Of a stretch of 64,000 nt of DNA, positions 35,810 through 55,964 are shown in pieces. The DNA is from Pectobacterium araliae (GTDB lineage: Bacteria > Pseudomonadota > Gammaproteobacteria > Enterobacterales > Enterobacteriaceae). The notes beneath the pieces are model-generated. The model had not been told where the DNA came from and did no database searches. It was given only the letters and a program-made list of their open reading frames with translations. The number at the start of each line of letters is the position of its first letter. The stretch's first letter is position 1. The stretch is taken from positions 1,612,001 to 1,676,000 of the forward strand of contig NZ_AP028908.1 in NCBI RefSeq assembly GCF_037076465.1. Direction: 5' to 3'. The translations under genes and the position numbers were made by a program.

Positions 35810-37183
35810 CTACTCGTTACGAGGGAAAATAGTGTGCAACGCCTGGCAGGATTCATCATAGTCACTTTGTTCAAACATACCCTGTTGCAAGAAGGCTTCC
35901 AAATAGGGATAGAGCCGAATTGCTTTATCGAGCATAGGGTCACTGCCTGCGGCGTAGGCACCCACACTGACTAAATCACGGTTACGTTGGTAACTGGATA
36001 GTAACTGTTTAAACTGCCTTACAGAAGCATAGTGACTTTCATCAATCAGTGCTGTCATCGCACGACTAATCGATGCTTCAATATCAATTGCCGGATAATG
36101 GCCAGACTCTGCGAGTTGACGAGATAACACGATATGTCCGTCAAGGATAGCTCGAGCGGAGTCGGCTATAGGATCCTGCTGATCGTCACCTTCTGTCAGA
36201 ACAGTATAGAAGGCGGTGACAGAGCCTCCTCCATGAATACCATTTCCTGCGCGTTCTACCAGAGCAGGTAATTTGGCGAAGACAGAAGGTGGATAACCCT
36301 TGGTTGCCGGTGGTTCACCAATTGCTAAGGCAATTTCACGTTGCGCCATAGCATAACGCGTGAGTGAATCCATGATTAGCAGTACGTGATGACCACGATC
36401 GCGAAAATCTTCAGCAATACGTGTGGCATATGCCGCCCCTTGCATCCTTAATAATGGAGAAACATCCGCCGGGGCAGCGATAACGACAGAGCGTGCCCGT
36501 CCTTCCGTGCCTAGGATATTCTCGATGAAATCTTTCACTTCTCGACCACGTTCGCCGATAAGGCCAACGACAATGACGTCAGCCTGAGTATAGCGCGCCA
36601 TCATGCCCAACAGCACGCTTTTACCAACACCTGAACCTGCAAACAAGCCCATTCGCTGCCCTCGACCTACGGTGAGCAAGGCATTGATGGCTCGAACCCC
36701 CACATCAAGAACACTCTCGATTGGCGTTCTTTGCAATGGGTTGAATGGTGGCGTAATCAGTGGTGCACGATAGCCTGTATCGGGTGCGGGTAAACCATCC
36801 AGCGGTTTTGCGCTACCGTCTAACACTCGGCCTAGTAATTCAGGGCCTAAGGGTAATTGCTTTCCTTGGCTGCTGCTGTCTTGGCCAACGCGAGCGTAAA
36901 CACGCGCACCAGGGGTAATACCTTCAACTTCTTCCAGCGGCATAAGAAAGAGTTTTTGCCCGTTGAAACCGACAACTTCGCTTTCGATTTCTTCAACTTG
37001 AGAACCGTTCTGCCGTTCGATGAGACAGGTTGCGCCCAGCGGCATATGTAGCCCTGTTGCTTCCAATACTAAACCTGTTGCCCGGGTTAAGCGACCATAG
37101 CGACGCACTGAAGGGGTGTCGTCAATACGCTTCTCAAATGAATCGAGAGAAGAGAGCCAGCGCCCAAGGCGTGAAGTCATCAT
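35810..37183 (-). CDS. fliI: Flagellar export ATPase FliI
   Basis: F1-beta-like ATPase of the export apparatus. Walker A is GSGVGKS (183-189); the Walker B strand reads [12 protein letters not shown]. The reading frame is open upstream to 37210, but the ATG at 37183 overlaps the fliH stop as ATGA and gives 457 residues, the E. coli length. A second ATG follows directly at 37180. Confidence 0.97.
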
Positions 37184-37902
37184 AGTTCTCCCGGTGCAGC
37201 TAAACGGCAAAGTTCATGCCAGCGCGTCGCCAGGCTGGCATCCAGATCGCCTTCCTCAGCGCTGACCTTACAACCACCAGGGTGGAGTTGCCCATCAGCC
37301 AGCAATCTCCAGCCGTGTAAGCTGAGTGTTGGACCCAAATATTGTTCAACGCGTTCTAAATCTGAAGGATGAACGCGCAATTGTGTTTTACCTGAAAACA
37401 TCGGTTCTTGTTGGATCAATTGCTGTATCTGAGCAAGTAAAGCGTTACCATCGCATACCGGAGGCTGCCCTAGAATCTGTTTGGCTGCGGTCAGTGCTAG
37501 CTGCATCAGGCGGGCAGGGATAACACTGTCAAGCGTATCCAACGTCTGCTGGAATTCAGTGACCATATTTTGCATCTGTTCAATCATCGGTTGCTGCTGT
37601 AGCAAGGCATTCTGCAAGCCTTGCTGTTGACCTTGAGCTAAACCTTCTTGATAACCTGCGTCATACCCTTGTTGATGACCTTGTGCAAAACCAGTTTCTC
37701 GAGCCTGTTGCATTGTACTTTCGCGCAGAGACTCCAGTTCATCCTCTGCGGAGAATAAGGAGTTCTCTTCACTTGAACTCGCTACATCAGGAAAATCTGG
37801 CTCATCATTTACCTGGTATGTTGGGGCTGCTTTTGACACGGGGTCAGCCAGCTCGTTGAGCTGCCAGGGCTGCCAGGCTAGATTTTTTGAGGCGTTAGAC
37901 AT
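37180..37902 (-). CDS. fliH: Flagellar export ATPase regulator FliH
   Basis: Inhibitor and C-ring anchor of FliI. The 240-residue protein contains a run of GxxxG repeats ([17 protein letters not shown]), typical of FliH, then a helical and a C-terminal globular domain ending RLAAPGEL. I start at the ATG at 37902, which overlaps the fliG stop and has GAGG at proper distance. A longer frame starts at 37920. Confidence 0.95.
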
Positions 37903-38887
37903 AAGCATCCTCGCCGCCACCGATAATCATCTCGCCACTGTCTGCCAGTCGACGAACGATAAGCAGGATCGCTTTCTGTTCGTTTTCGACCTGCGACATA
38001 CGCACTGGACCACGTGTAGACAGATCGTCGCGAAGGATTTCCGCCGCACGCTGGGACATATTGCGCAGGAATTTCTCGCGCAAAGGTTCTTCGGCACCTT
38101 TCAATGCCAACAATAGCGACTCGGACTCGACTTCTTGCAGAAGGCGCTGGATGCTGCGATCGTCCACGTCCACCAGGTTTTCGAACAGGAACATTTCGTC
38201 GATGATTTTTTGTGCCAATTCGCCATCGAACTCGCGTACAGCATCGATAACGGCTTCTTCTTGCTGACTTTTCATCAAGTTGATAATTTCAGCCGCAGTG
38301 CGCACACCACCCATCTTGCTGCGTTTGATATTTTGCCCATCCAGCAAGCCATTCAGCACGTCAGTCAGTTCTGCCAGAGCTGAAGGCTGAACGCCGCCGA
38401 AGGTTGCGATACGCAGCATGACATCATGGCGAAGACGTTCGTCAAACAGGGCTAAGATATCGGCAGCCTGAGCGCGTTTCAGATGCACCAAAATGGTTGC
38501 GATAATCTGTGGATGTTCATCGCGAATAAGATCTGCGGCAATCTGCGGCTCCATAAAGTTGAGCGTTTCCATACCGCTGGATGTTTCGCGACTTTCCAGA
38601 ATATCTTCCAGCAGGCTAGACGCGCGCTCTTCACCCAGTGCTTTGACAAGCACGGCGCGCAGGTAGTCACTAGCATTAACACTCAGTGCTGCATATTGCT
38701 CAGAATCAGCTTCAAATTCCTTGAGAATATCTACTAATTGTTGATGTGAAACCTGGCGCATATTAGCCATTGCCGCACTGAGGTGTTGTACTTCTTTGGT
38801 TGAAAGATGAGTAAACACCTCTGCAGCACGGTCTTCACCGATTGTCATCAATAAGATGGCGCTTTTTTCTGTTCCTGTCAGGGTCAT
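37895..38887 (-). CDS. fliG: Flagellar motor switch protein FliG
   Basis: Rotor torque protein of 330 residues between MS ring and C ring. Three helical domains are visible, with the EHPQ motif ([15 protein letters not shown]) of the middle domain and the charged torque helix near the C-terminus ([17 protein letters not shown]). It overlaps fliF by 4 bp and fliH by 8 bp. Confidence 0.97.
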
Positions 38888-40593
38888 AGTTCACTACTCA
38901 TCCATTGGCGAATCACCAGAGCAACCACGCGCGGGTCATTTTCGGCCAGTTCACGTATCCGGTTACTTTGCATTTCCGCACTAACGCGTTGTTGAGATTT
39001 CCGTTGTTGCTCAATTTCAGAGGTACTGAGATTCACAACGACATCATCATTACCCTTATTCAGGGCGGCCGCCGCCAATGCCGCTTCTTGTTGCTGAGAT
39101 TTTCTCTGTAGTTGCGGACGAACTAACTTACGCCACAGAATCCAGGCAACAATCAGAACCAACAACCAACGACCCGCTTCCATCAGGAGATCGAAGAAAG
39201 CTTGTTTTTGCCAGAAGGGGAGTTCACTAGAGCCTTCGGCACCGTCCATAAATGGCGTGTTAACGACATTCAATGTATCACCACGCTCAGCAGAGAACCC
39301 CATCGCTTCGCGTGCTACCGTTTCAATCTGTTTGATCTGATCTTCCGTCAGCGCAACGGGTTTACCATCCTCACCTGGAGGCTGATAGTTAACGATAACA
39401 GCCGCAGACAAGCGTTTCACACCACCCGTGCTATGTTTGGTATGTAAAATCGTCTTGTCGACTTCATAGTTGGTCGTTGCATCATTGCGAACATTTGATG
39501 TCTGAATGACTGCATTGGCAGAATTAGCTGGTGTACCCGCGGCATTGTTTGGGTTCTGCTGACCAGCCTGGTTGTTTGCATTGGCATTATTTGGCGCGGT
39601 TGCAATAGGGGCTGTCGGGGCTGGTGCCGGCTGATTGGTCAATGCCCCAGGAACACCACCGACATTCGGACCTCCTTTCTGCTCACTCTGGCTGGTTTGT
39701 TGGGAGCGAACAGCTGCTTTATCCGGCGGTTGATTGGGTTGATATTGTTCGTCAGTTTGTTCGCGAGCAGAAAAATCGATTTGCGCAGTGACCTGAGCAT
39801 GTACGTTGCCCATACCGACCATTGGCGCGATGATTGACTCTATACGGCGCTGGTACATTGCTTCGACTTCGTTGCTGTACTTAAGCTGCGCAGCATTCAG
39901 ATCTCGGCCGCTACCACCCGCCTGAGTTAATAGGCGTCCGGTTTGATCGACGACAGTAACATTATCCGGCGGCAGACCCGCAACGCTACTGGAAACCATG
40001 TAAACAATAGAGTTGATTTGACCTTCATCTAAAGCACGACCTGGTTGCAATGTCAGGGTGACAGAAGATGAGGGAGATTTTTGCTCACGAACGAACAGTG
40101 AAGGCTTCGGTATGGCAAGGTGAACTCGCGCGTTTTGTACGGGGCCCAGTGTTTCTATCGTTCTGGATAGTTCACCTTCTAGCGCGCGTTGGTAATTAAT
40201 TTGTTCGCTGAATTGGCTGATGCCAAATTTTTCCTTATCGAGCAATTCAAAGCCAACAGCGCCGCCTTTTGGTAGTCCCAGTTGGGCAAGTCGGAGTCGA
40301 GTCTCATAGACATTTGCGGCGGGAATCATGATCGCGCCACCACTTTCTGCAAAGCGATAAGGGATATTCAGCTTTGTTAATTCGCTGACAATCGCTCCGC
40401 CATCCCGATCGTTTATATTGCTATAAAGTACCCGATAATCTGGGCCTTTAGCCCATAACGTCAATGCGACAACAATGGCAATTGTCGCTGCTGCTGCGAT
40501 GAGTAGCGGAATCTTCGGATTGGCGCGTAACCGGCTGAGTATTTCGCCAAAGCTATTTTTACCGGTAGCGAAGCCGGTTAATGAGGCGTTCAT
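38884..40593 (-). CDS. fliF: MS-ring protein FliF
   Basis: Inner-membrane ring on which the flagellum is built. The 569-residue protein has two membrane helices (about 30-48 and 455-475), two ring-building motifs between them, a long Asn/Pro/Ala-rich low-complexity stretch (about 300-360), and a C-terminal FliG-binding tail ([19 protein letters not shown]). First gene of fliFGHIJK; divergent from fliE across 259 bp. Confidence 0.96.
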
Positions 40594-43958: not shown

Positions 43959-44786
43959 ATGGCCGGTATTAACACTAACGTAATGTCTCTGATCACTCAG
44001 AACAACCTGAACAAATCTCAATCTTCTCTGGGTACTGCTATCGAGCGTCTGTCTTCTGGCCTGCGTATCAACAGTGCTAAAGACGATGCTGCTGGTCAGG
44101 CGATTGCGAACGGCATGACTGCACAGATTAAAGGCTTGACCCAGGCTGCCCGTAACTCTAACGATGGTATTTCTCTGGTTCAGACCGCTGAAGCTAACCT
44201 TAACGAAATCAATAACAACCTGCAACGTATCCGTGAACTGTCAGTTCAGGCAGCAAGTGACACCAACACCACTGAAAACCGTGAATCAATCGCACTTGAA
44301 ATCTCTCAACGTGTTTCTGAAATCGACCGTATCACCAATACCGCTAAATTCAACGGTATCGAGCTGCTGAAAGGTGGTGCTGACATTTCTATTCAGGTTG
44401 GTGCGAATACCGGACCGGACGATGCCATCGCTATCGGTTCAAGCGCGCTGATTGCTTCTTCTTCTGGCGATCTGGGTGTTACTGGTCTGGATGTTTCAAC
44501 CGCTGCAGGTGCAACAGCATCAATCAGCGCGGTTGATGCTGCTCTGAAACAGGTTGACACTGCACGTAGTAACTTGGGTGCGATTCAGAACCGTTTCGAA
44601 TCTACCATTACTAACCTGAATAACACGGTTAACAACCTGTCTGCTGCTCGTGGCCGTATCGAAGATGCTGACTATGCAACTGAAGTGTCCAACATGAGCA
44701 AGGCTAACATCCTGCAACAGGCTGGTACTTCTGTATTGTCTCAGGCTAACCAGGTTCCACAAAACGTCTTGTCTCTGCTGCGTTAA
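43959..44786 (+). CDS. fliC: Flagellin FliC
   Basis: Filament subunit of 275 residues, much shorter than the about 500 of E. coli. Both terminal D0/D1 domains are intact, while the usual D2/D3 surface domains are missing; only about residues 140-190 are variable, rich in Ser, Thr, Ala and Gly. The N-terminal stretch RLSSGLRINSAKDDAAG (30-46) is the region recognised by plant FLS2 (flg22) and animal TLR5. Codon choice is that of a highly expressed gene. The neighbouring sugar genes suggest that the exposed Ser/Thr residues are glycosylated. Confidence 0.97.
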   Translation: MAGINTNVMSLITQNNLNKSQSSLGTAIERLSSGLRINSAKDDAAGQAIANGMTAQIKGLTQAARNSNDGISLVQTAEANLNEINNNLQRIRELSVQAASDTNTTENRESIALEISQRVSEIDRITNTAKFNGIELLKGGADISIQVGANTGPDDAIAIGSSALIASSSGDLGVTGLDVSTAAGATASISAVDAALKQVDTARSNLGAIQNRFESTITNLNNTVNNLSAARGRIEDADYATEVSNMSKANILQQAGTSVLSQANQVPQNVLSLLR

Positions 44787-44826
44787 TTTTTCGACGCACA
44801 TCCTTATCAGGATAATGATAATGCTG

Positions 44827-44851
44827 AACCAGCCCTCGGGCTGGTTTTTTT
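44827..44851 (+). terminator. Strong terminator after fliC
   Basis: AACCAGCC-CTCG-GGCTGGTT with eight or more Ts, 40 bp after the fliC stop. It should largely isolate the sugar genes downstream from the fliC promoter. Confidence 0.93.
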
Positions 44852-44970
44852 ATATGTATTGCAGTGATGCTGATAATTGCCCTGCTAAGGCAGCGCTGTT
44901 CTTTCGATTGTTATTCCTGATTTTTGTTAGGTTAATAGGCTATTGTGAATAGAGATAGGTCTGCTCCCTA

Positions 44971-47900
44971 ATGGTTCGTAATACGCCCTCATCTGTTGGT
45001 ATTCCTCCATCTGCCAATAACGCTGCTGCTTCTAATATCCTTCCTTATACCTCGCCGGCGCATTTACAAGCCGTCGCATGGTTACACGGCGTAAAATGTG
45101 CTGTACCTGAAAACGCAAGGGTGCTAGAGCTTGGGTGTATGGCTGGGGAGAATCTTTTTCCTTTTGCACTGGCCTATCCCCAGAGCTCGTCTATCGGCAT
45201 CGATTTGGACGTGGAAAAGGTTGAAGAAGGGCAACAACTGCTGATTGAGTTTGGCGTTGAAAATCTTCAACTTGCAGCGATGGATTTAAACACCCTGCTG
45301 GAAAGCGAGTTAGGGCAGTTCGATTATATCATTGTGCATGGCATTTTTGGCTTAGTGAGTGGTGAAGCTCGAACTGCATTACTGCAATTTTGCCAGAAGC
45401 ATCTTTCTCCTGTTGGCACGGTAAGCTTCAAATACGCTACGTATCCCGGTGGGAAAACAGCGGAGGTATTGAAGGATGCATTAAGCCTTCATACAAGCTT
45501 GGCCGAAACAGTGGAACAACAGCAAGAAAGTGCCAGAGCTATGCTGACTTATCTGTCATTAGGGTTGTCTCCTCATAATACTCAGGAAAAGGCGCTACGG
45601 AAATGGGTCGAGCAGGCTGAACAGCAGAGTGATGTTCAGCTAGCGCTGAATTATCTACAGGGCCTGAATGAGCCATGCTATCTGTTAGATTTTAACACAT
45701 TAGCCACTGGGGCCGGCCTGGCCTATGTTGGCGATATTCAGCCACATACAGAATTAGCTGAACATTATGGTGAAAATGTTTCTAGCATGCATCAGGTCAT
45801 TTGTGCGTCGATGCACAAAGTGTTGAAGCAACAATATCTTGATTTTGCTGTCGGAAGAGAAAGTAGATTTAGTTTACTTGTGTCACAAGAACGTTTAGAA
45901 GAAGTTTTACCCGAGCCGGATTGGTCGCGGTTAGCCGATTTTCACTGGGCTGGCAGTTTCCTTCCGTTTTATACAGAGCAGGGTACAAGTACTAATAGGT
46001 GGCGTTCTGCCTCTGGCGTCATGGTTACAACCAGCCATCCTCTGACGCAACGTGTGTTAACTACGTTAGGTGAATCTTGGCCATTAGCTCAGTCTTTTCA
46101 GCAACTTTTATTTAATACTCGTGAACCAGAAAAACCTGAAACCGATGAACGAGTTAACGTGCAAAATGCATTGAAGGCTTTGTTTATCAAAGGATTAGGT
46201 GAGTTGCATTTTAGACTTGGTGGATGTGTTTATCAGAAGAGCTCATCGCCTGCGCTTTGCCTGTTGCCTGGTGTCCTAAAGGCAAAAAACAACTTTAACT
46301 TCTGGCATGAGCCCGTATCGCTAGAGTTGTCGGATGCTGAAAAAATATCTCTGGCTTCTTGGGATTTGTGGAGTGGTCAGCAAGATGAAAATTACTTCCC
46401 TCTTATGCGGCGTTTACATCAGCATGGTGTTTTACAAGGGAGGGTTCGTGCATGGCATCGCTACTTCCAGAATGCATTACTAGCAAGTTCCGGCATAAAG
46501 GAGATTATGTCGTATATCGGTGCATTAGTGTTTTATGTCAGCGATCCTAAAACTGGTGGTGTGTACAAATCACCCTTACTCACAAATGGATATGCGGTAA
46601 AAGCGGTTAAGATTGCTGAAAAAACGGTGCAGGAGATCGCTTGGTTAATTTCCAATGGTGACTTTATTCAGGCAAGGTATATTGCAGAGCGATTGACACA
46701 AAAAGATCCTGAGAATATTGAAAACTGGAACCTGCTCGCCGACACATTAAGAAAAACAGGGGACGCAGAAGGCGCTTCCTTAGCATTAGTACAAATTATC
46801 TCCCGACATTTGTTCAGTTGGAGTGTCTATTACGATCTGGCAACCCAAAGCCAGGACGCCGGACTAAAGCGTGAAACATTAAATCTGGTACGAAAAATTA
46901 TCCGATGCGACCCTGAAAATGCGCAGGCCTGGAATCTTTTAACCGTTATTCATTTAAGTCTCTATAACTTAGAGCAAGCAGAATTTTGCGGAAAAAAAGC
47001 TATTGGCCTGAATGAAAATGATGTATCTATATTGAATAGCATGGCGGCTATTTACGAATCACATTCTCAACAGGATGAAGCAAACAATTATTATCGGCGT
47101 ATTATGGAGCTCTCTCCTAACGCTTCGAATCTGCATAGTAACTTTCTCTTTGGCCTAACGCACAGTAGTACGATTTCACCAGAAACCCTTTTCCAGGAAC
47201 ACCGGGAATTTGGTCTGCGTACTGAGGCGAGAGTAGAGAAATTGAAGCTACAACTCCCTGTGCGCCAGTATGATAAAAATCCTAATCGGGTTTTACGTAT
47301 CGGTTTTGTCTCTGGGGATTTAGGGTTGCACCCGGTGACTAATTTTCTTGAACCGGTTTGGAATTCAATTAATCTCGACTGTTTTTCATTATATGTCTAT
47401 GCGACATCAACATTGCATGATGAAGTAACCCAGCGTTTAAAAGAAAAAACAGCTGCTTGGCATTTTGTAAGAGATAAAAGCGATGTTGATCTGGCAAAGC
47501 TGATTGGTGAAGACAAGATAGATATCTTATTCGATCTTTCGGGCCATACTGCGTATAACCGTTTACCCATGTTTGCATTGAAGCCAGCGCCAATACAGAT
47601 TAGCTGGATCGGTTATCCAGGAACAACAGGGTTACAGGCAATGGATTATTTTATGAATATTAACCATGCCCCGCAGCCTGAAATTTTCGATCATCAGTTT
47701 ATTGAAAAAATACTTTATGTACCATTTACCCAACAGTTTCAAGTAATCACAGACAGTCCTGATGTCGGGAAGTTACCCGCTCTTGATAAGGGCTACTTTA
47801 CGTTTGCCAGTTTTAATCGTCCAAAAAAAATCAACGATCAGGTTTTAACAGCATGGTCAAAGATTCTGATGGCGCTTCCTACTAGTAAGATGATTATTGG

Positions 47901-48408
47901 TGCACTTTCAGGGCAACAGGTTATCGATAATATTCGCAATAAGATGGTGTCTATGGGGGTGTTAGCTGAGCAATTAATATTCCGTGAAAGAACCAACATA
48001 ACGGGATATTTAGCCATGCATAATGAAATCGATCTCCTATTGGACACCTTCCCTTATACTGGCGGAACGACGACAAACTATGCTTTGTGGATGGGAGTTC
48101 CCACGCTGACGATAGCAGGTGATACACTTGCTACCCGTCAAGGTGTAGCGACATTGAATGCTGCAGGATTATCCGAGTTTATCGCAACCTCTGAAGAGGA
48201 TTATATCCAGCGGTCAATCAACTGGAGTCTGCGTCTCGACGAGTTAGCGTTAGTTCGTGCTAACTTACGTGCTCGGTTAGCTAATGATTATAATGAAAAA
48301 GTAACCCCTGCAACCTATTTTGAGCGTGCTTTGCAGATAGCTTGGCAGCGTTATTGTGCAGGAGAGGCGACGATAAGTTTTTCTATTGAGCGCGATTCGT
48401 ATAATTAA
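44971..48408 (+). CDS. Methyltransferase-TPR-OGT fusion, putative flagellin glycosyltransferase
   Basis: Very large protein (1145 residues), with three parts. (1) About 30-165: class I SAM methyltransferase with motif I VLELGCMAGENL (51-62), D78 and a TYPG element (157-160), followed to about 520 by a methyltransferase regulatory-type region. (2) About 585-760: helical TPR-like repeats. (3) About 770-1130: O-GlcNAc-transferase (SPINDLY/GT41) domain with H787 in SGDLGLHPVTNF, K953 in NRPKKIND, and a UDP-sugar-site-like stretch TGGTTTNYALWMGVPTLTIAG. OGT-like proteins glycosylate flagellin Ser/Thr in other bacteria; the position next to fliC suggests the same here. The methyltransferase may methylate the glycan or the filament. 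Ribosome site weak; no sigma-28 promoter seen. Confidence 0.85.
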   Translation: MVRNTPSSVGIPPSANNAAASNILPYTSPAHLQAVAWLHGVKCAVPENARVLELGCMAGENLFPFALAYPQSSSIGIDLDVEKVEEGQQLLIEFGVENLQLAAMDLNTLLESELGQFDYIIVHGIFGLVSGEARTALLQFCQKHLSPVGTVSFKYATYPGGKTAEVLKDALSLHTSLAETVEQQQESARAMLTYLSLGLSPHNTQEKALRKWVEQAEQQSDVQLALNYLQGLNEPCYLLDFNTLATGAGLAYVGDIQPHTELAEHYGENVSSMHQVICASMHKVLKQQYLDFAVGRESRFSLLVSQERLEEVLPEPDWSRLADFHWAGSFLPFYTEQGTSTNRWRSASGVMVTTSHPLTQRVLTTLGESWPLAQSFQQLLFNTREPEKPETDERVNVQNALKALFIKGLGELHFRLGGCVYQKSSSPALCLLPGVLKAKNNFNFWHEPVSLELSDAEKISLASWDLWSGQQDENYFPLMRRLHQHGVLQGRVRAWHRYFQNALLASSGIKEIMSYIGALVFYVSDPKTGGVYKSPLLTNGYAVKAVKIAEKTVQEIAWLISNGDFIQARYIAERLTQKDPENIENWNLLADTLRKTGDAEGASLALVQIISRHLFSWSVYYDLATQSQDAGLKRETLNLVRKIIRCDPENAQAWNLLTVIHLSLYNLEQAEFCGKKAIGLNENDVSILNSMAAIYESHSQQDEANNYYRRIMELSPNASNLHSNFLFGLTHSSTISPETLFQEHREFGLRTEARVEKLKLQLPVRQYDKNPNRVLRIGFVSGDLGLHPVTNFLEPVWNSINLDCFSLYVYATSTLHDEVTQRLKEKTAAWHFVRDKSDVDLAKLIGEDKIDILFDLSGHTAYNRLPMFALKPAPIQISWIGYPGTTGLQAMDYFMNINHAPQPEIFDHQFIEKILYVPFTQQFQVITDSPDVGKLPALDKGYFTFASFNRPKKINDQVLTAWSKILMALPTSKMIIGALSGQQVIDNIRNKMVSMGVLAEQLIFRERTNITGYLAMHNEIDLLLDTFPYTGGTTTNYALWMGVPTLTIAGDTLATRQGVATLNAAGLSEFIATSEEDYIQRSINWSLRLDELALVRANLRARLANDYNEKVTPATYFERALQIAWQRYCAGEATISFSIERDSYN

Positions 48409-48416
48409 AATGTATT

Positions 48417-48440
48417 GAGCACAGCTTTGCTGTGCTCTTT
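48417..48440 (+). terminator. Terminator-like hairpin after the fusion gene
   Basis: GAGCACAGC-TTT-GCTGTGCTC is a perfect 9-bp stem, followed by only three Ts. It begins 9 bp after the stop and may partly separate the fusion gene from the three sugar genes that follow. Confidence 0.65.
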
Positions 48441-48508
48441 GCTCGTTACTTGGTCGGTTATATACCTTTGTGTTGTAACTACGGATGTTAATTTCTGCGA
48501 GAACGATA

Positions 48509-49618
48509 ATGAAAAATCCGATATATGTAACAAGCCCATTACTTCCGCCGTTGGAGGAGTTTACGCCATATTTGGAAGAAATTTGGAAAAATAAATATTT
48601 GACAAATAACGGCGCATTCCATCAACGCTTGGAAAATGAATTGGCCCAATATCTGGGGGTCGAGTATCTGAGCTTATTTAGTAATGGCACATTGGCACTG
48701 CTTACTGCGCTGCAAACGCTCCGCATCACTGGAGAAGTTATTACAACACCTTATTCTTTTGTGGCAACATCACATAGCTTGTTGTGGAATGGACTAAAAC
48801 CAGTATTTGTCGATATCGACCCTGTTACCTGTAACCTTGATCCAGATAAAATAGAAGAAGCGATTACCCCCGCAACTTCTGCTATTTTGCCTGTGCATTG
48901 CTACGGTATCCCCGCTAACGTCGAAAGAATTCAGCAACTCGCTGATAATTATGGTTTACGTGTAATTTATGATGCTGCGCATGCTTTCGGTGTTAAAAAG
49001 GATGGTGTCAGTGTTTTGAATCATGGTGATTTGTCTATTCTCAGTTTTCATGCAACTAAAGTATTTAACACCATTGAGGGGGGGGCAATTATTTGTCCTG
49101 ATGCTAAAACCAAAAAACGTATCGATTATTTAAAGAATTTTGGTTTTGCAGATGAGTTAACAGTCGTTGCCCCTGGTATCAATGGTAAGATGAATGAAGT
49201 ACAGGCTGCTTTTGGCTTATTACAGTTAAATTATATTGATAGCGCTTTGCTAAATCGTGAAAAAATATACAATCGTTACTGTGAGCGATTGATCGATATT
49301 CCGGGTATCCGACTGATTAATGTCCCTAAAAATGTCACATGGAATTATGCATATTGCCCAATATTCGTCGATTCGTCGTTTCCTGTCGATCGTGAAGTGC
49401 TATATGAAAAATTGAAAGAGAAGAATATTTATACTCGGCGTTATTTTTATCCACTGATTAGTTCATTTCCTATGTACCGAGGTTTAGAAAGTGTGATAAA
49501 AAATGATCTTTCTGTTGCTAACTATATTTCTAATATGGTTTTATGCTTGCCAATATACTCTGACTTGGCAGAGGATGAGCAAGATCAGATTATTAATGAA
49601 ATTCTATCTTTTCTATAA
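48509..49618 (+). CDS. VioA-like PLP-dependent sugar aminotransferase
   Basis: DegT/DnrJ/EryC1/StrS-family enzyme that puts an amino group on a nucleotide-linked keto-sugar. The PLP lysine is K184 (SFHATKVFNTIEGG), and D155 lies in the VIYDAAHAFG stretch. The close fit to VioA-type enzymes suggests dTDP-4-keto-6-deoxyglucose as substrate and dTDP-viosamine (Qui4N) as product; the substrate is inferred. I start at the ATG at 48509 (MKNPIYVTSPLLPP), with an in-frame ATG at 48485 as alternative. 369 residues. Probably co-transcribed with the next two genes (42- and 41-bp gaps). Confidence 0.88.
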   Translation: MKNPIYVTSPLLPPLEEFTPYLEEIWKNKYLTNNGAFHQRLENELAQYLGVEYLSLFSNGTLALLTALQTLRITGEVITTPYSFVATSHSLLWNGLKPVFVDIDPVTCNLDPDKIEEAITPATSAILPVHCYGIPANVERIQQLADNYGLRVIYDAAHAFGVKKDGVSVLNHGDLSILSFHATKVFNTIEGGAIICPDAKTKKRIDYLKNFGFADELTVVAPGINGKMNEVQAAFGLLQLNYIDSALLNREKIYNRYCERLIDIPGIRLINVPKNVTWNYAYCPIFVDSSFPVDREVLYEKLKEKNIYTRRYFYPLISSFPMYRGLESVIKNDLSVANYISNMVLCLPIYSDLAEDEQDQIINEILSFL

Positions 49619-49660
49619 TGTTATAATAATCGGGTTTTCTGAACGTTTGAGGTGACATGA

Positions 49661-50308
49661 ATGATACTAGGTATTTATGGAGCTGGGGGGTTGGGGCGTG
49701 AAACACTAATGCTAGCTCAACTTATCAACGCGAAAGAAAAACGATGGGAAGAGATTCTCTTTATCGATGATATCAATCCTGAACGTGTATTGAAAAACAT
49801 CTCGGTTAAATCGTTCGATCAGGTAAAAAATATAAAATTTCTAGAAGTAGTTATTGCAATTGGCGAACCTGCAATTAGAGCTTCGATGGCTGAAAAAATC
49901 AGGGGTAGCGGAGTTAATTTAGCCACACTGATTGATCCATCTGCTTATATTTCACCGTGTAGTAAGATAGGGGAAGGCGTTGTTATTTATCAGGGAGTGA
50001 ATATTTCATGTGATACCTGTATCGAAGATAACGTGATCATGCAGGCTTTTTCTAGTATTAGTCATGACTGTCACATTGCCGCTCATTCAATAACGTCTAC
50101 TTATTCTGCTATGGCTGGGGCTGTTTATGTTGGCACCAGAACATTTATTGGCATGGGAGCGTTGATTAAGGAAAAAATTCGTATCGGTAATGATGTTATT
50201 GTCGGGATGGGAGCTAACGTGGTTTCATCAGTACCTGACAAAATGGTAGTTTTAGGGAACCCTGCGAAAATAGTAAGAGAAAATGACAGCAATAGAGTGT
50301 TTAGGTAG
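49661..50308 (+). CDS. PglD/NeuD-family sugar N-acyltransferase
   Basis: Acyltransferase of 215 residues. An N-terminal Rossmann-like part (ILGIYGAGGLGRETLMLAQ) is followed by hexapeptide repeats of a left-handed beta-helix (about 95-205). H135 in SISHDCHI matches the catalytic histidine of PglD. Together with the upstream aminotransferase it would acylate the new amino group, as VioB does in viosamine pathways. The acyl donor cannot be read from the sequence. Confidence 0.85.
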   Translation: MILGIYGAGGLGRETLMLAQLINAKEKRWEEILFIDDINPERVLKNISVKSFDQVKNIKFLEVVIAIGEPAIRASMAEKIRGSGVNLATLIDPSAYISPCSKIGEGVVIYQGVNISCDTCIEDNVIMQAFSSISHDCHIAAHSITSTYSAMAGAVYVGTRTFIGMGALIKEKIRIGNDVIVGMGANVVSSVPDKMVVLGNPAKIVRENDSNRVFR

Positions 50309-50349
50309 TTTTCTTTTTAATGAAGGATCTTCATCTAGGAGTATGATGT

Positions 50350-51765
50350 ATGACTGAGTATAAACATGCAAAATCGATGCCTCAGTTTTATCGTGATGTT
50401 TTTTCCCGTGAATTGGATCTAGGGGATATTGGGAGTTTACCCCAAGAATTTGTTACCGCTATCATAGAGGGAAATACAGATACTCTGTTAATTAATAAAA
50501 AAATTTATGGTTATGATAGTGGATTAGAAACAAGTCATGATGAAGCTTTAAAGCAGCTGTTACTTACTATATCACTGGCAAATATAGCATTTGATGGGAA
50601 ATTTGAAGGGAAGAACGTAAGATTACCAGTGGATTATATTGCGAATATACGAAATTCATTGGTGGAGATAATAAACCTTAAACCTTGTGTAGAATATCTT
50701 GTTGTTGCTATTCAATTACTATTTCGCATTGGTGATGTAGAAGCTGCAGTCACACTAATCAATAATAATTTCTCCGTCCTGAGCGATTCTCCCGCTGCAT
50801 TTAGAATACTGCTCATGATTTGTATGATCGAAGAGGATTATGATCTGGCACTTCCATTAGTGCAAGAAATGACAACCAAGCAACACCTCATTGGTGAACA
50901 TTGGTTTACATTATTAATGGTGACTTGTGCCATTTATAAACTAGGCGGGCACCCTGAATCTTATATAGATTTTCGTCCACTTTTAAAAGGTAATAAATTT
51001 CCTTCCGATGATAATTATAAATGGCTAATCAAGCAGGAGGGAAATAATGGAAAGATAACTGTAATTATTTCGTGTGACGTAAAATATTATTATGAACATG
51101 CGATATCAGCGTTGTATTCAATATACGAGACTAATAAAGATAATTTTAATGTACATTTTCATGTCTATAATATAGATGATGCAACCTATAATGATATATT
51201 AAAGAAAAAATCCTCTTTCCCAGAGTTAAATATTTCGTGTACAACTGAATATTTTTCTGGAATGAAGGGGATGAATGTTCACTATGCGTCAAGGCGTTTT
51301 GTTTTTTCTCGTCATGCGTTGTCAGTTTTAAATTCACCCGTTTTAATACTTGATGCTGATTGTTTATTTAGAAAAAATTTTTCAGAAACCATTAAGCAAT
51401 GGCAGTCAACTGATCTTGTGTTAACAGAAAGTGAAAGTGCTCCATTTTGGGAGAAAGCTTTGGGAGGGTTTATTTATCTGGGTGGTGGACTAACCTCAAA
51501 AACATTTATCGATAAGACGGCCTCTTTTATTCATACTAATCTGCTGAGTGATAATAGTGTCTGGTTTTTAGATCAGGTTGCGCTCTCTGCTGCTATTGAT
51601 GCTGTCGGTATGCCTGGTGATATTTCCAGAATAGACCCTGCTATCGTTTGTGATGTAAGTCATGTGAGTTATTCATTACTATGGATGGTGACGACTGTGA
51701 AAAATGCAGAAGGGAAATACTCCGATTATAAAAAACGGCTAATCGAAAAATATCATATCGTTTAA
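50350..51765 (+). CDS. GT8-like glycosyltransferase with helical N-terminal region
   Basis: Protein of 471 residues. The first 220 are mostly helical and may be TPR-like. From about 235 the chain looks like a GT8/GT-A sugar transferase (ITVIISCDVKYYYEHAISAL), with the metal-binding DxD motif at D335-A-D337 (PVLILDADCLF) and an LDQVALSAAI helix near the end. It probably acts on the flagellin glycan or a lipid- or protein-linked precursor; acceptor unknown. AGGAG lies upstream of the ATG. It is more AT-rich than the flagellar genes. The gene ends just before a terminator invaded by a group II intron. Confidence 0.7.
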   Translation: MTEYKHAKSMPQFYRDVFSRELDLGDIGSLPQEFVTAIIEGNTDTLLINKKIYGYDSGLETSHDEALKQLLLTISLANIAFDGKFEGKNVRLPVDYIANIRNSLVEIINLKPCVEYLVVAIQLLFRIGDVEAAVTLINNNFSVLSDSPAAFRILLMICMIEEDYDLALPLVQEMTTKQHLIGEHWFTLLMVTCAIYKLGGHPESYIDFRPLLKGNKFPSDDNYKWLIKQEGNNGKITVIISCDVKYYYEHAISALYSIYETNKDNFNVHFHVYNIDDATYNDILKKKSSFPELNISCTTEYFSGMKGMNVHYASRRFVFSRHALSVLNSPVLILDADCLFRKNFSETIKQWQSTDLVLTESESAPFWEKALGGFIYLGGGLTSKTFIDKTASFIHTNLLSDNSVWFLDQVALSAAIDAVGMPGDISRIDPAIVCDVSHVSYSLLWMVTTVKNAEGKYSDYKKRLIEKYHIV

Positions 51766-51779
51766 AACTTTTTGTGTAA

Positions 51780-51814
51780 AAGTAAGGCGAATTTTGCCTT
51801 ACTTATTTCTATTT
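51780..51814. terminator. Bidirectional terminator, insertion target of the intron
   Basis: AAGTAAGGC (51780-51788) and GCCTTACTT (51796-51804) form a perfect 9-bp stem with a 7-nt loop, followed by ATTTCTATTT. Before the intron arrived it would have lain between two convergent genes and served both. Group IIC introns insert just downstream of such hairpins. Confidence 0.85.
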
Positions 51815-53735
51815 GTGCGCCGGGCATGGCGCGTAGCGCCTTGACGGGCGCTGTCCGTTGACTGTAGTGGTCAAGGGGCGACTTGGCGGTGAAAGTCCTC
51901 TACACACCCGGCAAGGGGAAGTGTTAGCCGAACGGCAAGGGTGCCCACCGCGAGGTGGGATCTGAAGGAAGCTGAAGGCAAAATGCTGGCCTGACGAACA
52001 GGAAGCAGTTTAGGCGGCACAGCGGGGTAAGGTGGCAAATATCATCAAAGCCCAATACTTGCACAGAACGCTGTGACGTAAAGCTGACAGGCATAAGCAG
52101 GAAGGTCGCGCGAATTACCCCGGGAGGGCTGCACGTTTGCTTCAGGGCTACCGAGCGTCGAGAGGCGACGGGATGAACGTGCAGCAGTCAGCCGAAGCCG
52201 TAGTAGTGCTGCATAACTGGCAGCATGAAGGGCTGAACATGATTAACCGTGATTAGGACACCGATACTCGATGGGAATTAATGAGGCACAAGCGCAGAGC
52301 ACTGCGGCCAGCGGCAGAGGAGACGGACAGTATCCGTCAGTGCTGCATGAGGGTGCTGAAATCCCCACGGCGGTCGGTGGGCAAACGAAAGCGGAAATGC
52401 CGTTGACGATGGAAACGGTGATAACGAGAGAGAACCTGATGCTGGCCTATCAGCGCGTGGTGGAAAACAACGGCGCGGCAGGGGTAGATAACCTGAAAGT
52501 GACGGAGTTGAAGCCGTGGCTGAAACAGAACTGGGCGAGTATCAGGCAGGCATTGATTACGGGCGCCTACCAGCCGCAGGCGATACGCAGAGTGGATATC
52601 CCAAAGCCGGACGGCGGCGTGAGAACCCTGGGTATCCCGACGGTAGTGGACAGGCTTATCCAGCAGGCGATAGCACAACAACTCAGTCCGGTCGTGGAGC
52701 CGCACTTCTGCGAATCGAGTTACGGGTTCAGAAGTAACCGCAATGCGTGGCAGGCAGTGCAACAGGCACAGCGCTACATACAAAGCGGGAAACGCTGGGT
52801 GGTCGATCTGGATCTGGAAAAGTTCTTTGACCGGGTGGATCATGACATTTTGATGTCACGTCTGGCGAGGCATGTCAGGGATAAACGGCTGTTGAAACTG
52901 ATACGTCGCTACCTTGAAGCGGAAATGACGAACGGGTGCGAGACAGAGAAGCGAGGTAAGGGAATGCCGCAGGGCGGACCGTTGTCGCCGCTACTGTCGA
53001 ACATTCTGCTGGATGAACTGGATAAAGAACTGGAGCGTCGAGGTCACAGCTTCTGTCGCTATGCGGATGACTGCAACATTTACGTGAGCAGTCGCAAAGC
53101 AGGCGAGCATATCTTTAGGGCAATCAGGGTGTACCTGAGAGACATACTGAAGCTAAAGGTCAATGAGCAGAAGAGTGCGGTGGCGCGACCGTGGGAGCGT
53201 AAGTTCCTGGGATACAGCGTGACACGGCACAAACAGACCCGACTGAAGATCGCAGGGAGCAGTGTCGAGAGGCTGAAGGAGAAGATCCGTAGCCTGACGA
53301 CAGGGCACGCGACGAAATCAGTGAAAGGCGTAATCAATGAACTCACACCGATACTGCGAGGCTGGATGAGCTACTTCAGATACACGGAAGTAAAAGGAGT
53401 TCTGGAGAAGATTGACGGCTGGGTCAGGCGTAAACTGCGCAGTCTACTGTGGCGGCAATGGAAACGAACGTATACGCGAGCCCGAATGCTAATGCGAGCG
53501 GGCTTGTGTGAAAAGCGAGCGTGGAGGTCGGCGAGTAACCAGCGAGGAGCGTGGTGGAACGCGGGGTCGAGTCACATGAATGATGCGATAAAGACGGCGC
53601 AGTTCAGACGACTCGGCTTGATATCACTAGTGGAGCAGCAACGGCAGTTCCAGAGTTAACATGAACCGCCGTATGCGGAACCGCACGTACGGTGGTGTGA
53701 GAGGACGGCGGGAGTAATCTCGCCTCCTACTCGAT
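51815..53735 (+). mobile_element. Group IIC intron (ribozyme plus reverse transcriptase)
   Basis: The 5' end is GTGCGCC, fitting the GUGYG start of group II introns. A structured 450-bp ribozyme part leads into the RT gene. Domain V lies at 53665-53696: 9-bp stem, 2-nt bulge (C53686-G53687), 4-bp stem and GAAC loop, with a CGC triad (53667-53669), typical of class C. The 3' end is placed after CTACTCGAT (53735); this end is inferred. The hairpin target just upstream and the lack of an endonuclease domain agree with class C. About 1.92 kb and apparently complete. Confidence 0.88.
52271..53659 (+). CDS. ltrA: Group II intron reverse transcriptase/maturase
   Basis: Intron-encoded protein of 462 residues that helps splicing and reverse-transcribes the intron into new sites. 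RT motifs in order: VDIPKPDGGVRTLGIP (108-123), VVDLDLEKFFDRVDHD with D179 and D181, MPQGGPLSP (232-240), and the catalytic YADD (264-267). A maturase (X) domain follows (about 320-440). No HNH endonuclease domain. All key residues are intact, so the protein is probably active. Confidence 0.93.
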   Translation: MGINEAQAQSTAASGRGDGQYPSVLHEGAEIPTAVGGQTKAEMPLTMETVITRENLMLAYQRVVENNGAAGVDNLKVTELKPWLKQNWASIRQALITGAYQPQAIRRVDIPKPDGGVRTLGIPTVVDRLIQQAIAQQLSPVVEPHFCESSYGFRSNRNAWQAVQQAQRYIQSGKRWVVDLDLEKFFDRVDHDILMSRLARHVRDKRLLKLIRRYLEAEMTNGCETEKRGKGMPQGGPLSPLLSNILLDELDKELERRGHSFCRYADDCNIYVSSRKAGEHIFRAIRVYLRDILKLKVNEQKSAVARPWERKFLGYSVTRHKQTRLKIAGSSVERLKEKIRSLTTGHATKSVKGVINELTPILRGWMSYFRYTEVKGVLEKIDGWVRRKLRSLLWRQWKRTYTRARMLMRAGLCEKRAWRSASNQRGAWWNAGSSHMNDAIKTAQFRRLGLISLVEQQRQFQS

Positions 53736-54782
53736 TAGGAGGCGAGCTATTCCTGCTTTTGCTGGTGTATAATTCCCACATTTTTCATAAAATGCAACAG
53801 CCTCATCAAGCATGTTATGACACTCTAGTATTACTGCAATATTGTGGTTGGCTTTGTAAGAATTGACGCCGCTTTTTCTTCCTGGAGGCATACTAATACA
53901 TTGCTGAAAATTATCTAATGCTCCCTGAAAATCAGAGTTATTCATAAGGATTAAAGCTTTTAGAAAAATAAAATCAGTAGATGGGTAATATTTTTCATAT
54001 TTTAATACATCTAATGATTCTTTATATTTTCCAGTGTTTATAAGGCTATATCCATAGCATTCAATTAAGTTTTCATTATAGGTAAGAAAGAAGTTACTTT
54101 GAAGTTTAATTGCTATGGAAAAGCTATTTATAGCTGAAATATAATCTTTTCTCAGGTAATGACTTTTCCCTAATTGATAATGAAGATAAGGTTCTTTTGG
54201 CGTATCACTGATAGCTTTTTCTAGCATGCTAATGTTTCTTGCTATCTTATTTGTTTGACGAAGAACCTCTTGCTGGTAACCAATATGGTTTAATACTATT
54301 GGCGCAGTAAAACGTTTTGTTGTGTGCGTGTTAGTTGTTCTTGGAACAATCTGCTCGTGAATGCTTCCTTCATAATAATAGAGATCTTTCCGGAAAAGAC
54401 GACTGAAATTTTCTTTAACAATACTATTTTCACCGTCCTCATCTATATGATCCAGTCTTTCGATGTTGCCGATTTTAGTAGCATGCTGGTGAAGGAGTTT
54501 GGATAATTCAGCCATATCAATTAATTCAATTTCTTCATCAGCATCAATGACCAGTACCCAGTCATGTTTTGTAAATTGTAGGGCGTAATTTCTTGCGGCG
54601 GAAAAATCGGCTATCCATTCAAAGTCATAAACTTTGTCAGTAAAAACCCTGGCGATATTTTTTGAGTCATCGGTCGAACCAGTATCTACGACAACAATGT
54701 CGTCGAAATATTTTACAATCTCTTTCAGTGCGTTGCCTAAGTGTAAAGCTTCGTTTTTTACGATCATGCAGACTGATATCAT
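53727..54782 (-). CDS. GT2 glycosyltransferase with TPR-like C-terminus
   Basis: Family 2 glycosyltransferase of 351 residues. The GT-A domain starts at once (MISVCMIVKNEALHLGNALK) with DTGSTDDS (33-40) and the metal-binding D80-A-D82; the second half is built of helical TPR-like repeats (YLHYQLGKSHYLRKDYISAI). It resembles proteins that accompany flagellin-glycan loci. The last residues and the stop (IE-TAG) are read from inside the group II intron; the junction implies an original end LLK-TAG. Divergent from fliA across 459 bp. Sugar and acceptor unknown. Confidence 0.8.
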   Translation of the reverse strand: MISVCMIVKNEALHLGNALKEIVKYFDDIVVVDTGSTDDSKNIARVFTDKVYDFEWIADFSAARNYALQFTKHDWVLVIDADEEIELIDMAELSKLLHQHATKIGNIERLDHIDEDGENSIVKENFSRLFRKDLYYYEGSIHEQIVPRTTNTHTTKRFTAPIVLNHIGYQQEVLRQTNKIARNISMLEKAISDTPKEPYLHYQLGKSHYLRKDYISAINSFSIAIKLQSNFFLTYNENLIECYGYSLINTGKYKESLDVLKYEKYYPSTDFIFLKALILMNNSDFQGALDNFQQCISMPPGRKSGVNSYKANHNIAVILECHNMLDEAVAFYEKCGNYTPAKAGIARLLIE

Positions 54783-55241: not shown

Positions 55242-55964
55242 GTGAGCGATTTGTATACCGCCGAAGGCACAATGGATAAAAATTCCCTTTGGAAGCGCTA
55301 TGTTCCACTAGTGCGCCATGAAGCCTTGCGTTTACAGGTTCGTCTCCCCGCGAGTGTTGAACTTGACGATCTGCTACAGGCCGGCGGTATTGGCCTGTTA
55401 AGCGCCGTTGAGCGTTATGATTCGTTACAGGGTACGGCGTTTACCACCTATGCCGTTCAGCGAATTCGTGGCTCGATGTTGGATGAATTACGCAGTCGTG
55501 ATTGGGCTCCACGCAGCGTACGGCGTAATGCGCGGGAAGTGGCACAAGCAATGCAACAAGCTGAACAGCAGCTCGGTCGTACTCCAACGGAACAGGAAGT
55601 TGCGCAGACCCTGAATATCACGCTTGAGGATTATCGTCAGATATTGCTGGATACGAACAATAGCCAGCTTTTTTCTTACGATGAATGGCGTGAAGAACAT
55701 GGTGATAGCGCAGAGGCGTTACTGGAAGGCAATGAAGATGCGAATCCATTGCATCAATTGATGGAAGGCAATTTGCGTCATCGAGTGATGGATGCGATTG
55801 AAAGCCTGCCAGAGCGTGAGAAATTGGTGTTGACGCTCTACTATCAGGAAGAGTTGAACCTGAAAGAGATCGGTGCCGTTCTTGAAGTGGGGGAGTCGAG
55901 AGTCAGTCAGTTGCATAGCCAGGCGATAAAGCGCCTGCGCGTGAAATTAATGAATGATATCTAA
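55242..55964 (+). CDS. fliA: Sigma-28 factor FliA
   Basis: RNA polymerase sigma factor for class 3 flagellar genes. The 240-residue protein has sigma regions 2 (LDDLLQAGGIGLLSAVERYD), 3 and 4 (LTLYYQEELNLKEIGAVLEV) and matches E. coli FliA closely. The start is GTG (MSDLYTAEGTMDK), as in E. coli. Six matching promoters lie in this window. FlgM is its antagonist. Confidence 0.98.
   Translation: MSDLYTAEGTMDKNSLWKRYVPLVRHEALRLQVRLPASVELDDLLQAGGIGLLSAVERYDSLQGTAFTTYAVQRIRGSMLDELRSRDWAPRSVRRNAREVAQAMQQAEQQLGRTPTEQEVAQTLNITLEDYRQILLDTNNSQLFSYDEWREEHGDSAEALLEGNEDANPLHQLMEGNLRHRVMDAIESLPEREKLVLTLYYQEELNLKEIGAVLEVGESRVSQLHSQAIKRLRVKLMNDI

What the first reader, a model, noticed from the sequence alone, without database searches (positions are those of the whole stretch)
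44971..48408. Methyltransferase, TPR and OGT domains in one protein beside flagellin
The 1145-residue protein joins an apparently intact SAM-methyltransferase module, a methyltransferase regulatory-type region, TPR repeats and a SPINDLY/OGT-type transferase. In better-known systems these are separate proteins. One polypeptide might attach a sugar to flagellin and methylate it (or methylate the filament) in one step. The catalytic-like residues of both halves look preserved (E53-L-G-C, D78; H787, K953). This is the strongest candidate for an undescribed system in the window.
Basis: partly seen in the sequence, partly recalled or inferred. Interest (0 to 1): 0.85.

Follow-up and report, generated by a model that had tools for sequence, protein, structure and literature searches.

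The report
Lysine-methyltransferase fused to flagellin glycosyltransferase
Next to its flagellin gene a plant soft-rot bacterium carries one large enzyme whose back half resembles enzymes that attach sugars to proteins and whose front half is built like enzymes that methylate lysines on surface proteins, so one protein may mark flagellin in two ways; the fusion itself was already known from genome surveys.

The parts
43959..44786 (+). fliC, flagellin of 275 aa; the likely substrate. Lysines at 19, 41, 58, 130, 138, 197, 248; none in the outer loop 139-196, which holds 13 Ser/Thr
   Evidence: Pfam Flagellin_N/C; lysine positions; loop counts
44826..44847 (+). terminator-like hairpin between fliC and the fusion gene
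   Evidence: 2 terminator-like sites found in 44700-45050 against 0.2 expected
44971..48408 (+). fusion gene: PKMT-type methyltransferase + TPR + GT41 glycosyltransferase, 1145 aa
45028..46440 (+). residues 20-490, near-complete PKMT module; D78 and H123 align with the AdoMet-contacting D102 and H146 of RpPKMT1
46618..47130 (+). residues 550-720, TPR superhelix
   Evidence: Pfam TPR_17, TPR_19; helices in the model
47146..48369 (+). residues 726-1133, GT41 / SPINDLY-type glycosyltransferase; H787 and K953 invariant in 110 of 110
48485..49618 (+). DegT/DnrJ/EryC1/StrS sugar aminotransferase (amino-sugar donor)
   Evidence: PF01041 3.7e-98; best NCBIfam DesI, below its cut-off
49661..50308 (+). 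NeuD/PglD/VioB-family sugar acetyltransferase
   Evidence: TIGR03570 169.8 bits, cut-off 160.8; nearest PDB perosamine N-acetyltransferase 4ea7, 1.4e-27
50350..51765 (+). second glycosyltransferase: helical N part plus GT-A-like fold; relatives occur in Dickeya
   Evidence: AF2 pLDDT 91.5; Foldseek best hit GT8-family 3tzt, 1.5e-06; PF03407 below cut-off here, over it in relative P0148; Dickeya relatives 45-53% id
51944..53735 (+). group II intron with its reverse transcriptase/maturase ORF (52271-53659), inserted in the island
   Evidence: Rfam RF02001, RF01998, RF00029; PF00078, PF08388
53727..54782 (-). GT2 glycosyltransferase with TPR repeats, opposite strand
   Evidence: PF00535, TPR_2; relatives also in stretches L134 and L135, where no fusion was detected
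55242..55964 (+). fliA, the far border of the island
   Evidence: ORF; named from its sequence by recall; relatives border the gap in other stretches

Best explanation
One cytoplasmic polypeptide writes two marks on flagellin before export. The TPR/GT41 half O-links a 6-deoxy-amino sugar (supplied by RmlB elsewhere in the genome and by DegT and NeuD in the island) to Ser/Thr of the FliC outer loop; the second glycosyltransferase probably extends it. The N half is a PKMT-family methyltransferase held on the same substrate by the fusion, and most likely methylates lysine side chains of FliC (candidates K130, K138, K197 that flank the loop). SHOWN HERE: architecture, predicted fold, conservation, purifying selection, linkage to fliC. 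SHOWN BY OTHERS in Dickeya, for the gene in the same place: flagellin modification needs it. INFERRED: the sugar, catalysis by the N half, lysine of FliC as methyl acceptor.
For: Near-complete PKMT fold, and the characterised members of that family methylate protein lysines (Rickettsia PKMT1/2, Acinetobacter KmtA; PMC11784438, abstract and passages). AdoMet contact D/E78 kept in 110 of 110, and Q288, Y289, L290, D291, R296, R299 in 110 of 110. dN/dS is low in the MT domain (0.131 against L120, 0.066 against L121; GT41 0.120 and 0.190). Two of 25 Pectobacterium genomes carry a lone PKMT-family gene (566 and 564 aa) between fliC and fliA, with gaps of 157 to 381 bp that leave no room for sugar genes; it falls outside the fused group in the tree. 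Window and L121 are 68-100% identical in 40-residue windows up to residue 880 and 32-58% after it: the donor-side lobe changed while the MT stayed, as expected if the MT acceptor is not the sugar. FliB has no match in this genome, and in one genus that also has fusions FliB takes the place beside fliC (L130). Lysine at column 197 or 198 is commoner in flagellins beside intact-MT fusions (0.45 and 0.29 of 31) than in island-free ones (0 of 9 in both). Flagellins with both glycans and methyl-lysines exist (PMC9290775; PMC3765264). Disruption of Dda3937_03424 lowers FliC from 32170 to 28890 Da (PMC6637903).
Against: The FliC outer loop has no lysine here, one of 10 such among 40 flagellins beside fusions; those 40 loops carry 2.24 Lys per 100 aa, near stretches taken as other islands (1.21, n=9) and below FliB partners (8.36, n=6 from 3 loci) and lone-PKMT partners (5.49, n=2). 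The three flagellins with the most loop lysines beside a fusion (12, 20, 26) sit beside fusions with a changed H123. No lysine column is common to the intact-MT fusion flagellins and absent from the other groups. Lone PKMTs elsewhere in the class are not beside detected flagellar genes (0 of 37 stretches). FliB and the fusion are not strictly exclusive: 2 of 34 fusion genomes (G635, G743) also have FliB over the cut-off on other contigs. The region 311-540 of the PKMT part is less constrained (w 0.165 against L121) than the MT domain. No enzyme of this fusion type was assayed in any passage I read.
Confidence: 0.45

Rival explanations
1. The N half methylates the glycan (a hydroxyl or amine of the amino sugar), on the nucleotide sugar or on the glycopeptide, so that flagellin carries methylated sugars and no methyl-lysine. 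This is the reading of the 2016 survey.
For: DegT lies in the islands of 39 of 43 fusions (26 of 27 with E/D53, D/E78 and H123 all kept). Flagellins beside fusions are lysine-poor, like those of stretches taken as other islands. The window island shows no other methyltransferase among the genes scanned. Read so in PMC4875605.
Against: The characterised relatives act on protein lysine. The donor-side lobe of GT41 was exchanged while the MT stayed. Lone PKMT genes fill the fliC-fliA gap with no room for sugar genes. NeuD probably acylates the amine (inference). The Dickeya-type island has its own FkbM methyltransferase besides the fusion. The link between DegT and an intact MT site is not significant (Fisher p 0.14).
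Confidence: 0.3
2. The N half is no longer (or not always) catalytic and serves as a dimerisation or flagellin-holding module for the glycosyltransferase.
For: H123 is another residue in 35 of 110 and E53 in 31 of 110, 11 of these D; several loci and one copy in each of the tandem pairs of L062 and L065 are altered.
Against: D/E78 in 110 of 110 (one fetched locus, L081, has S); low dN/dS in the MT domain; the window copy keeps E53, D78 and H123.
Confidence: 0.13
3. The N half methylates another surface or flagellar protein and is fused only because both enzymes need the same local pool of substrates.
For: Lone PKMTs elsewhere in the class are not beside detected flagellar genes, and two lie in stretches with ORFs of 1906 and 2073 aa (L157, L158); KmtA acts on an adhesin (PMC11784438).
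Against: 40 of 44 fusion ORFs lie within 2 kb of fliC.
Confidence: 0.1

Closest known systems
Methyltransferase-bearing GT41 proteins of enterobacterial flagellin glycosylation islands (De Maayer & Cowan 2016, PMC4875605; Spy of Erwinia flag-3a, PMC7526173)
   Same: Same kinds of domain, place beside fliC, aminotransferase and acetyltransferase neighbours
   Different: In the passages I read it is called a methyltransferase domain (cd02440, pfam13649) and, in the 2016 paper, counted under glycan methylation; PKMT is not mentioned there
Dickeya dadantii Dda3937_03424 (PMC6637903)
   Same: Same gene order as the Dickeya-type loci L060 and L061; the mutant has smaller flagellin
   Different: I did not see its sequence; the passages treat it only as an O-GlcNAc transferase; the insertion says nothing about the methyl half
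Outer-membrane protein lysine methyltransferases PKMT1/2 (Rickettsia, 5dnk/5doo/5do0/5dpl) and KmtA (Acinetobacter Tol 5, PMC11784438)
   Same: Fold over nearly the whole length (PKMT1/2); Asp and His that contact AdoMet
   Different: Those are single enzymes on OmpB or AtaA; here fused to TPR-GT41 and placed at flagellin
SPINDLY (7y4i) and bacterial OGT (5djs, XcOGT 2vsn)
   Same: TPR plus two-lobed GT41 fold, conserved His and Lys
   Different: The matched chains align with the C half only; the donor here is probably a dTDP-linked 6-deoxy-amino sugar (inference)
FliB flagellin lysine methylase (NF038110)
   Same: Flagellin-locus methylase; lies beside fliC in L130, L131 and L149
   Different: Different profile family; no match in this genome

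Membership tests
PKMT-type protein lysine methyltransferase | Class I AdoMet domain with the Asp and His that bind AdoMet (RpPKMT1 D102, H146) | tested here: met
   D78 and H123 align; roles from PMC11784438
PKMT-type protein lysine methyltransferase | PF10119 region after the AdoMet domain | tested here: met
   63.2 bits, cut-off 25.5; at E up to 0.01 in 40 of 40 fusions scanned, 40 chosen from the 110; the lone PKMT L059 also carries PF10119
PKMT-type protein lysine methyltransferase | Whole four-domain fold | tested here: met
PKMT-type protein lysine methyltransferase | C-terminal winged-helix profile PF21782 | tested here: inconclusive
   No hit in the window protein at E up to 0.01 and not among the 25 of 45 families printed; found in the lone enzyme L059, 36.1 bits, cut-off 27.8; the fold alignment spans the region
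PKMT-type protein lysine methyltransferase | Transfers methyl to protein lysine | not testable with these tools
   Needs an enzyme assay
GT41 / SPINDLY-type O-glycosyltransferase | TPR superhelix plus GT41 catalytic lobes | tested here: met
GT41 / SPINDLY-type O-glycosyltransferase | Conserved His and Lys of the active site | tested here: met
   H787 and K953 in 110 of 110; aligned with SPINDLY; their catalytic role is recalled
GT41 / SPINDLY-type O-glycosyltransferase | Transfers sugar to Ser/Thr of protein | not testable with these tools
   Supported by the Dickeya mutant
Flagellin glycosylation island | Insert between fliC and fliA with a glycosyltransferase and sugar genes, low G+C | tested here: met
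   G+C 0.38-0.42 at 46001-52000 against 0.51 in 36001-40000
FliB lysine methylase | NF038110 profile | tested here: not met
   G000 has no match, so neither has this protein

The most novel reading that the evidence does not exclude
A single bacterial polypeptide carries out two chemically different post-translational modifications, O-glycosylation and lysine methylation, on one secreted protein: a PKMT-family enzyme captured by a flagellin O-glycosyltransferase, giving a flagellin lysine methylase unrelated to FliB and shared by many Enterobacterales.
Probability: 0.4. Interest if true: 0.7.

Novelty: new member of a known kind. Interest (0 to 1): 0.45.

Why it matters
If the N half methylates flagellin lysines, enterobacteria counted as 'glycosylation only' also methylate their flagellin, and a route for it besides FliB exists. 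The enzyme behind the methyl-lysines found on glycosylated flagellins of Shewanella and Aeromonas was left open or only putative in the passages read, so a glycosyltransferase-methyltransferase fusion gives a concrete model. If instead the glycan is methylated, a lysine methyltransferase fold has changed its acceptor, which is also worth knowing. Either answer comes from one mass-spectrometry comparison.

Tried and rejected
Rejected: 'undescribed architecture' (PMC4875605, PMC7526173). Rejected: FliB in this genome. Judged unlikely: the lone fliC-locus PKMT as a fusion that lost its OGT; it falls outside the fused group (rooting by midpoint only, and the output warns of long branches meeting). 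Rejected: a broad link between PKMT genes and flagellar loci; in 37 stretches (34 other genomes of the class) no ORF matched FliC, FliD, FliS, FliA or FliF of the window over 40 bits (some stretches were cut by contig ends, and distant flagellar genes could be missed). Inconclusive: DegT against intact MT site (Fisher p 0.14) and loop lysines of intact against altered MT (p 0.24). Loop-lysine contrasts (fusion n=40 against island-free n=9, p 0.017; against other islands n=9, p 0.25; against two short FliB partners, p 0.04) are uncorrected for relatedness and number of tests. The 20 comparison stretches were picked by me, mostly for short flagellins without a fusion; 'other island' there means that fliA was far from fliC or outside the stretch, gene content not scanned. 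The fusion group of 40 includes fusions with altered MT and short flagellin, two flagellins of L062, and those of L092 and L093; setting apart four fusions with altered MT and long flagellin was my choice after seeing the data; L065 and L090 had no flagellin in the stretch and were dropped. dN/dS is a simple Nei-Gojobori count on single pairs, and the exchange in GT41 confounds the comparison with L121. Led nowhere: a sigma-28-like site just before the fusion gene (nearest ones before fliC and fliD); the Rickettsia PKMT structure paper and Sun et al. 2013 (not held); a search for 'FgaT' in Dickeya (no occurrence in the 8 listed). Mass differences in D. dadantii (2144 and 1136 Da) do not fix the sugars; 1136 is near seven hexoses, my arithmetic only. 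The pdb_via note says that parts outside model 544-1139 are barely tested by that list; the four PKMT rows at ranks 46 and 48-50 agree with phmmer.
Full report
The ORF at 44971-48408 (+) is real, intact and 1145 aa long; 184 bp separate it from fliC on the same strand, with a terminator-like hairpin between them and no sigma-28-like site directly before it. Pfam finds methyltransferase, PF10119, TPR and GT41 domains over their cut-offs. The window lies in a one-contig genome of 4.66 Mb with one match to the protein. The closest protein found is 96% identical and named from Pectobacterium parvum (P0002).

Spread. Of the query plus the best 120 of 1951 hits, 110 of 121 hold both halves; in the other 11 no N half was found. 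In a family-wide draw 49 of 392 genomes have a match at E up to 1e-20; by my count of its rows 34 of these, this genome included, carry one ORF spanning both halves (G454 settled), one has the halves in two ORFs (G647), one a lone PKMT (G730) and 13 a GT41-type match only. Of the 34, two (G635, G743) also have FliB over the cut-off, on other contigs; FliB passes the cut-off in 59 of 392. In the genus 9 of 25 genomes carry the fusion, 2 a lone PKMT, 1 a GT41-type match without the PKMT part, and 13 no match. I read 50 stretches (L059-L098 and L120-L129): of 44 fusion ORFs, 40 have fliC within 2 kb and 41 share its strand; two stretches showed no fliC.

Is it used? H787 and K953 are invariant in 110 of 110; position 78 is D or E in 110 of 110; H123 is kept in 75 and E53 in 79. 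Between the window and L121 the MT domain (25-310) has w 0.066, the rest of the PKMT part 0.165, TPR 0.087 and GT41 0.190; against the closer L120 MT and GT41 are alike, 0.131 and 0.120. Window and L121 are 68-100% identical in 40-residue windows up to residue 880 and 32-58% after it, so the donor-side lobe of GT41 seems to have been exchanged while the MT was kept. L121 has the length of the named contig L002 (P. brasiliense CFBP8736) and is probably the same record.

The lone enzyme. In L059 and L128 a PKMT-family gene of 566 and 564 aa fills the gap between fliC and fliA, with 158 and 158, and 157 and 381 bp, on its two sides. Its protein in L059 is 100% identical to one named from Pectobacterium parmentieri (P0203); the 2016 survey reports a lone 'SmtA' in six P. 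wasabiae strains (PMC4875605), probably the same gene (that some of those strains were later renamed P. parmentieri is recalled). In a tree of 61 rows the fused PKMT halves form one side of a branch (100/100) and the lone fliC-locus pair lies on the other side with the lone PKMTs of other genera. The flagellins beside the lone enzyme are long and lysine-rich (12 and 11 lysines in the outer loop).

The difficulty. The FliC of this window has no lysine in its outer loop 139-196. Over the flagellins read, loop lysines per 100 residues are 2.24 beside fusions (n=40, 10 of them with none), 7.05 beside four fusions with altered MT and long flagellin, 4.02 beside GT41 of another layout (n=7), 1.21 in stretches taken as other islands (n=9), 3.71 with no island (n=9), 8.36 beside FliB (n=6 from 3 loci) and 5.49 beside lone PKMT (n=2). 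Fusion flagellins thus look more like glycan acceptors than methyl-lysine acceptors. Lysines 130 and 138 occur in 0.10 and K197 in 0.45 of 31 flagellins beside intact-MT fusions, so a single conserved target is not visible. E/D53, D/E78 and H123 are all kept in 27 of 43 fusions that have a flagellin in the stretch, and DegT is present in 39 of 43; the association is not significant. Lone PKMTs in 34 other genomes of the class are not near detected flagellar genes (0 of 37 stretches).

Sugar side. The genome has two RmlB genes over the cut-off outside the window; the island adds a DegT aminotransferase and a NeuD-family acetyltransferase, hence probably a dTDP-linked 4-acetamido-4,6-dideoxyhexose (inference). 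The third gene is a GT-A-like glycosyltransferase behind a helical domain. In Dickeya-type loci the order is fliC, fusion, DegT, ATP-grasp, oxidoreductase, FkbM methyltransferase, this glycosyltransferase, fliA, which fits the list given for D. dadantii 3937. There, disruption of Dda3937_03424 (strain A4277) gave FliC of 28890 Da and strain A3422 (by elimination the mutant of the other glycosyltransferase gene, Dda3937_03419) 31034 Da, against 32170 Da in wild type; A4277 macerated celery less, and motility was reported unaffected without data (PMC6637903, passages). I did not see the 3937 sequence; the match is by order and name.

Literature. Read as passages: PMC4875605 (also abstract and section 8), PMC7526173, PMC6637903, PMC7575072, PMC9650423, PMC9290775, PMC3765264, PMC8304393, PMC11784438 (also abstract). 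None of these passages links the fused methyltransferase to PKMT; the searches were made, in an open-licence library only.

Verdict. An intact member of a known, widespread fusion type. The identification of the N half as a near-complete PKMT-type lysine methyltransferase fold, and of a lone PKMT at the same site in sister species, turns a 'sugar methylation' label into a sharp question: lysine or glycan. I put 0.45 on lysines of FliC, 0.30 on the glycan, and the rest on a silent N half or another protein.

Noticed in passing
51944-53735: A group II intron with its reverse transcriptase/maturase sits inside the flagellin island; the neighbouring GT2+TPR gene on the minus strand ends within its last bases.
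   Followed up: partly
53727-54782 (-): GT2 glycosyltransferase with TPR repeats (weak SunS-like match, below cut-off); relatives lie in two stretches where no fusion was detected (L134, L135), so it may belong to another island type.
   Followed up: partly
L130:3631-7431: In a genus that also has fusion carriers, FliB stands beside fliC with a NeuD-family gene behind it, as if FliB replaced the fusion and DegT.
   Followed up: partly
L062, L065, L092: Tandem copies of the fusion, one with an intact and one with an altered methyltransferase site; in L065 and L092 one copy is broken into several ORFs.
   Followed up: partly
L096:7303-10620, L097:7559-10888, L098:6431-9754, L129:6684-10010: GT41 proteins of 1105-1109 aa beside fliC, with TPR-GT41 first and a long C-terminal extension that gave no Pfam hit in L096 (only L096 was scanned); in the first three the only large gene seen between fliC and fliA, in L129 followed by a second flagellin-like ORF.
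   Followed up: partly
window fusion residues about 880-1145 against L121: Sharp fall in identity within GT41: an apparent exchange of the donor-side lobe.
   Followed up: partly
L068:11406-14592: A fusion island with a cytidylyltransferase-like, a sulfatase-family and an ATP-grasp gene and no DegT detected.
   Followed up: no
L157:10140-15859, L158:1-6219: Lone PKMT genes in stretches with ORFs of 1906 and 2073 aa, possibly surface proteins.
   Followed up: no
L093:7474-10928: In one Dickeya-type locus the PKMT and GT41 halves are two overlapping ORFs; a real split or a sequence error.
   Followed up: no
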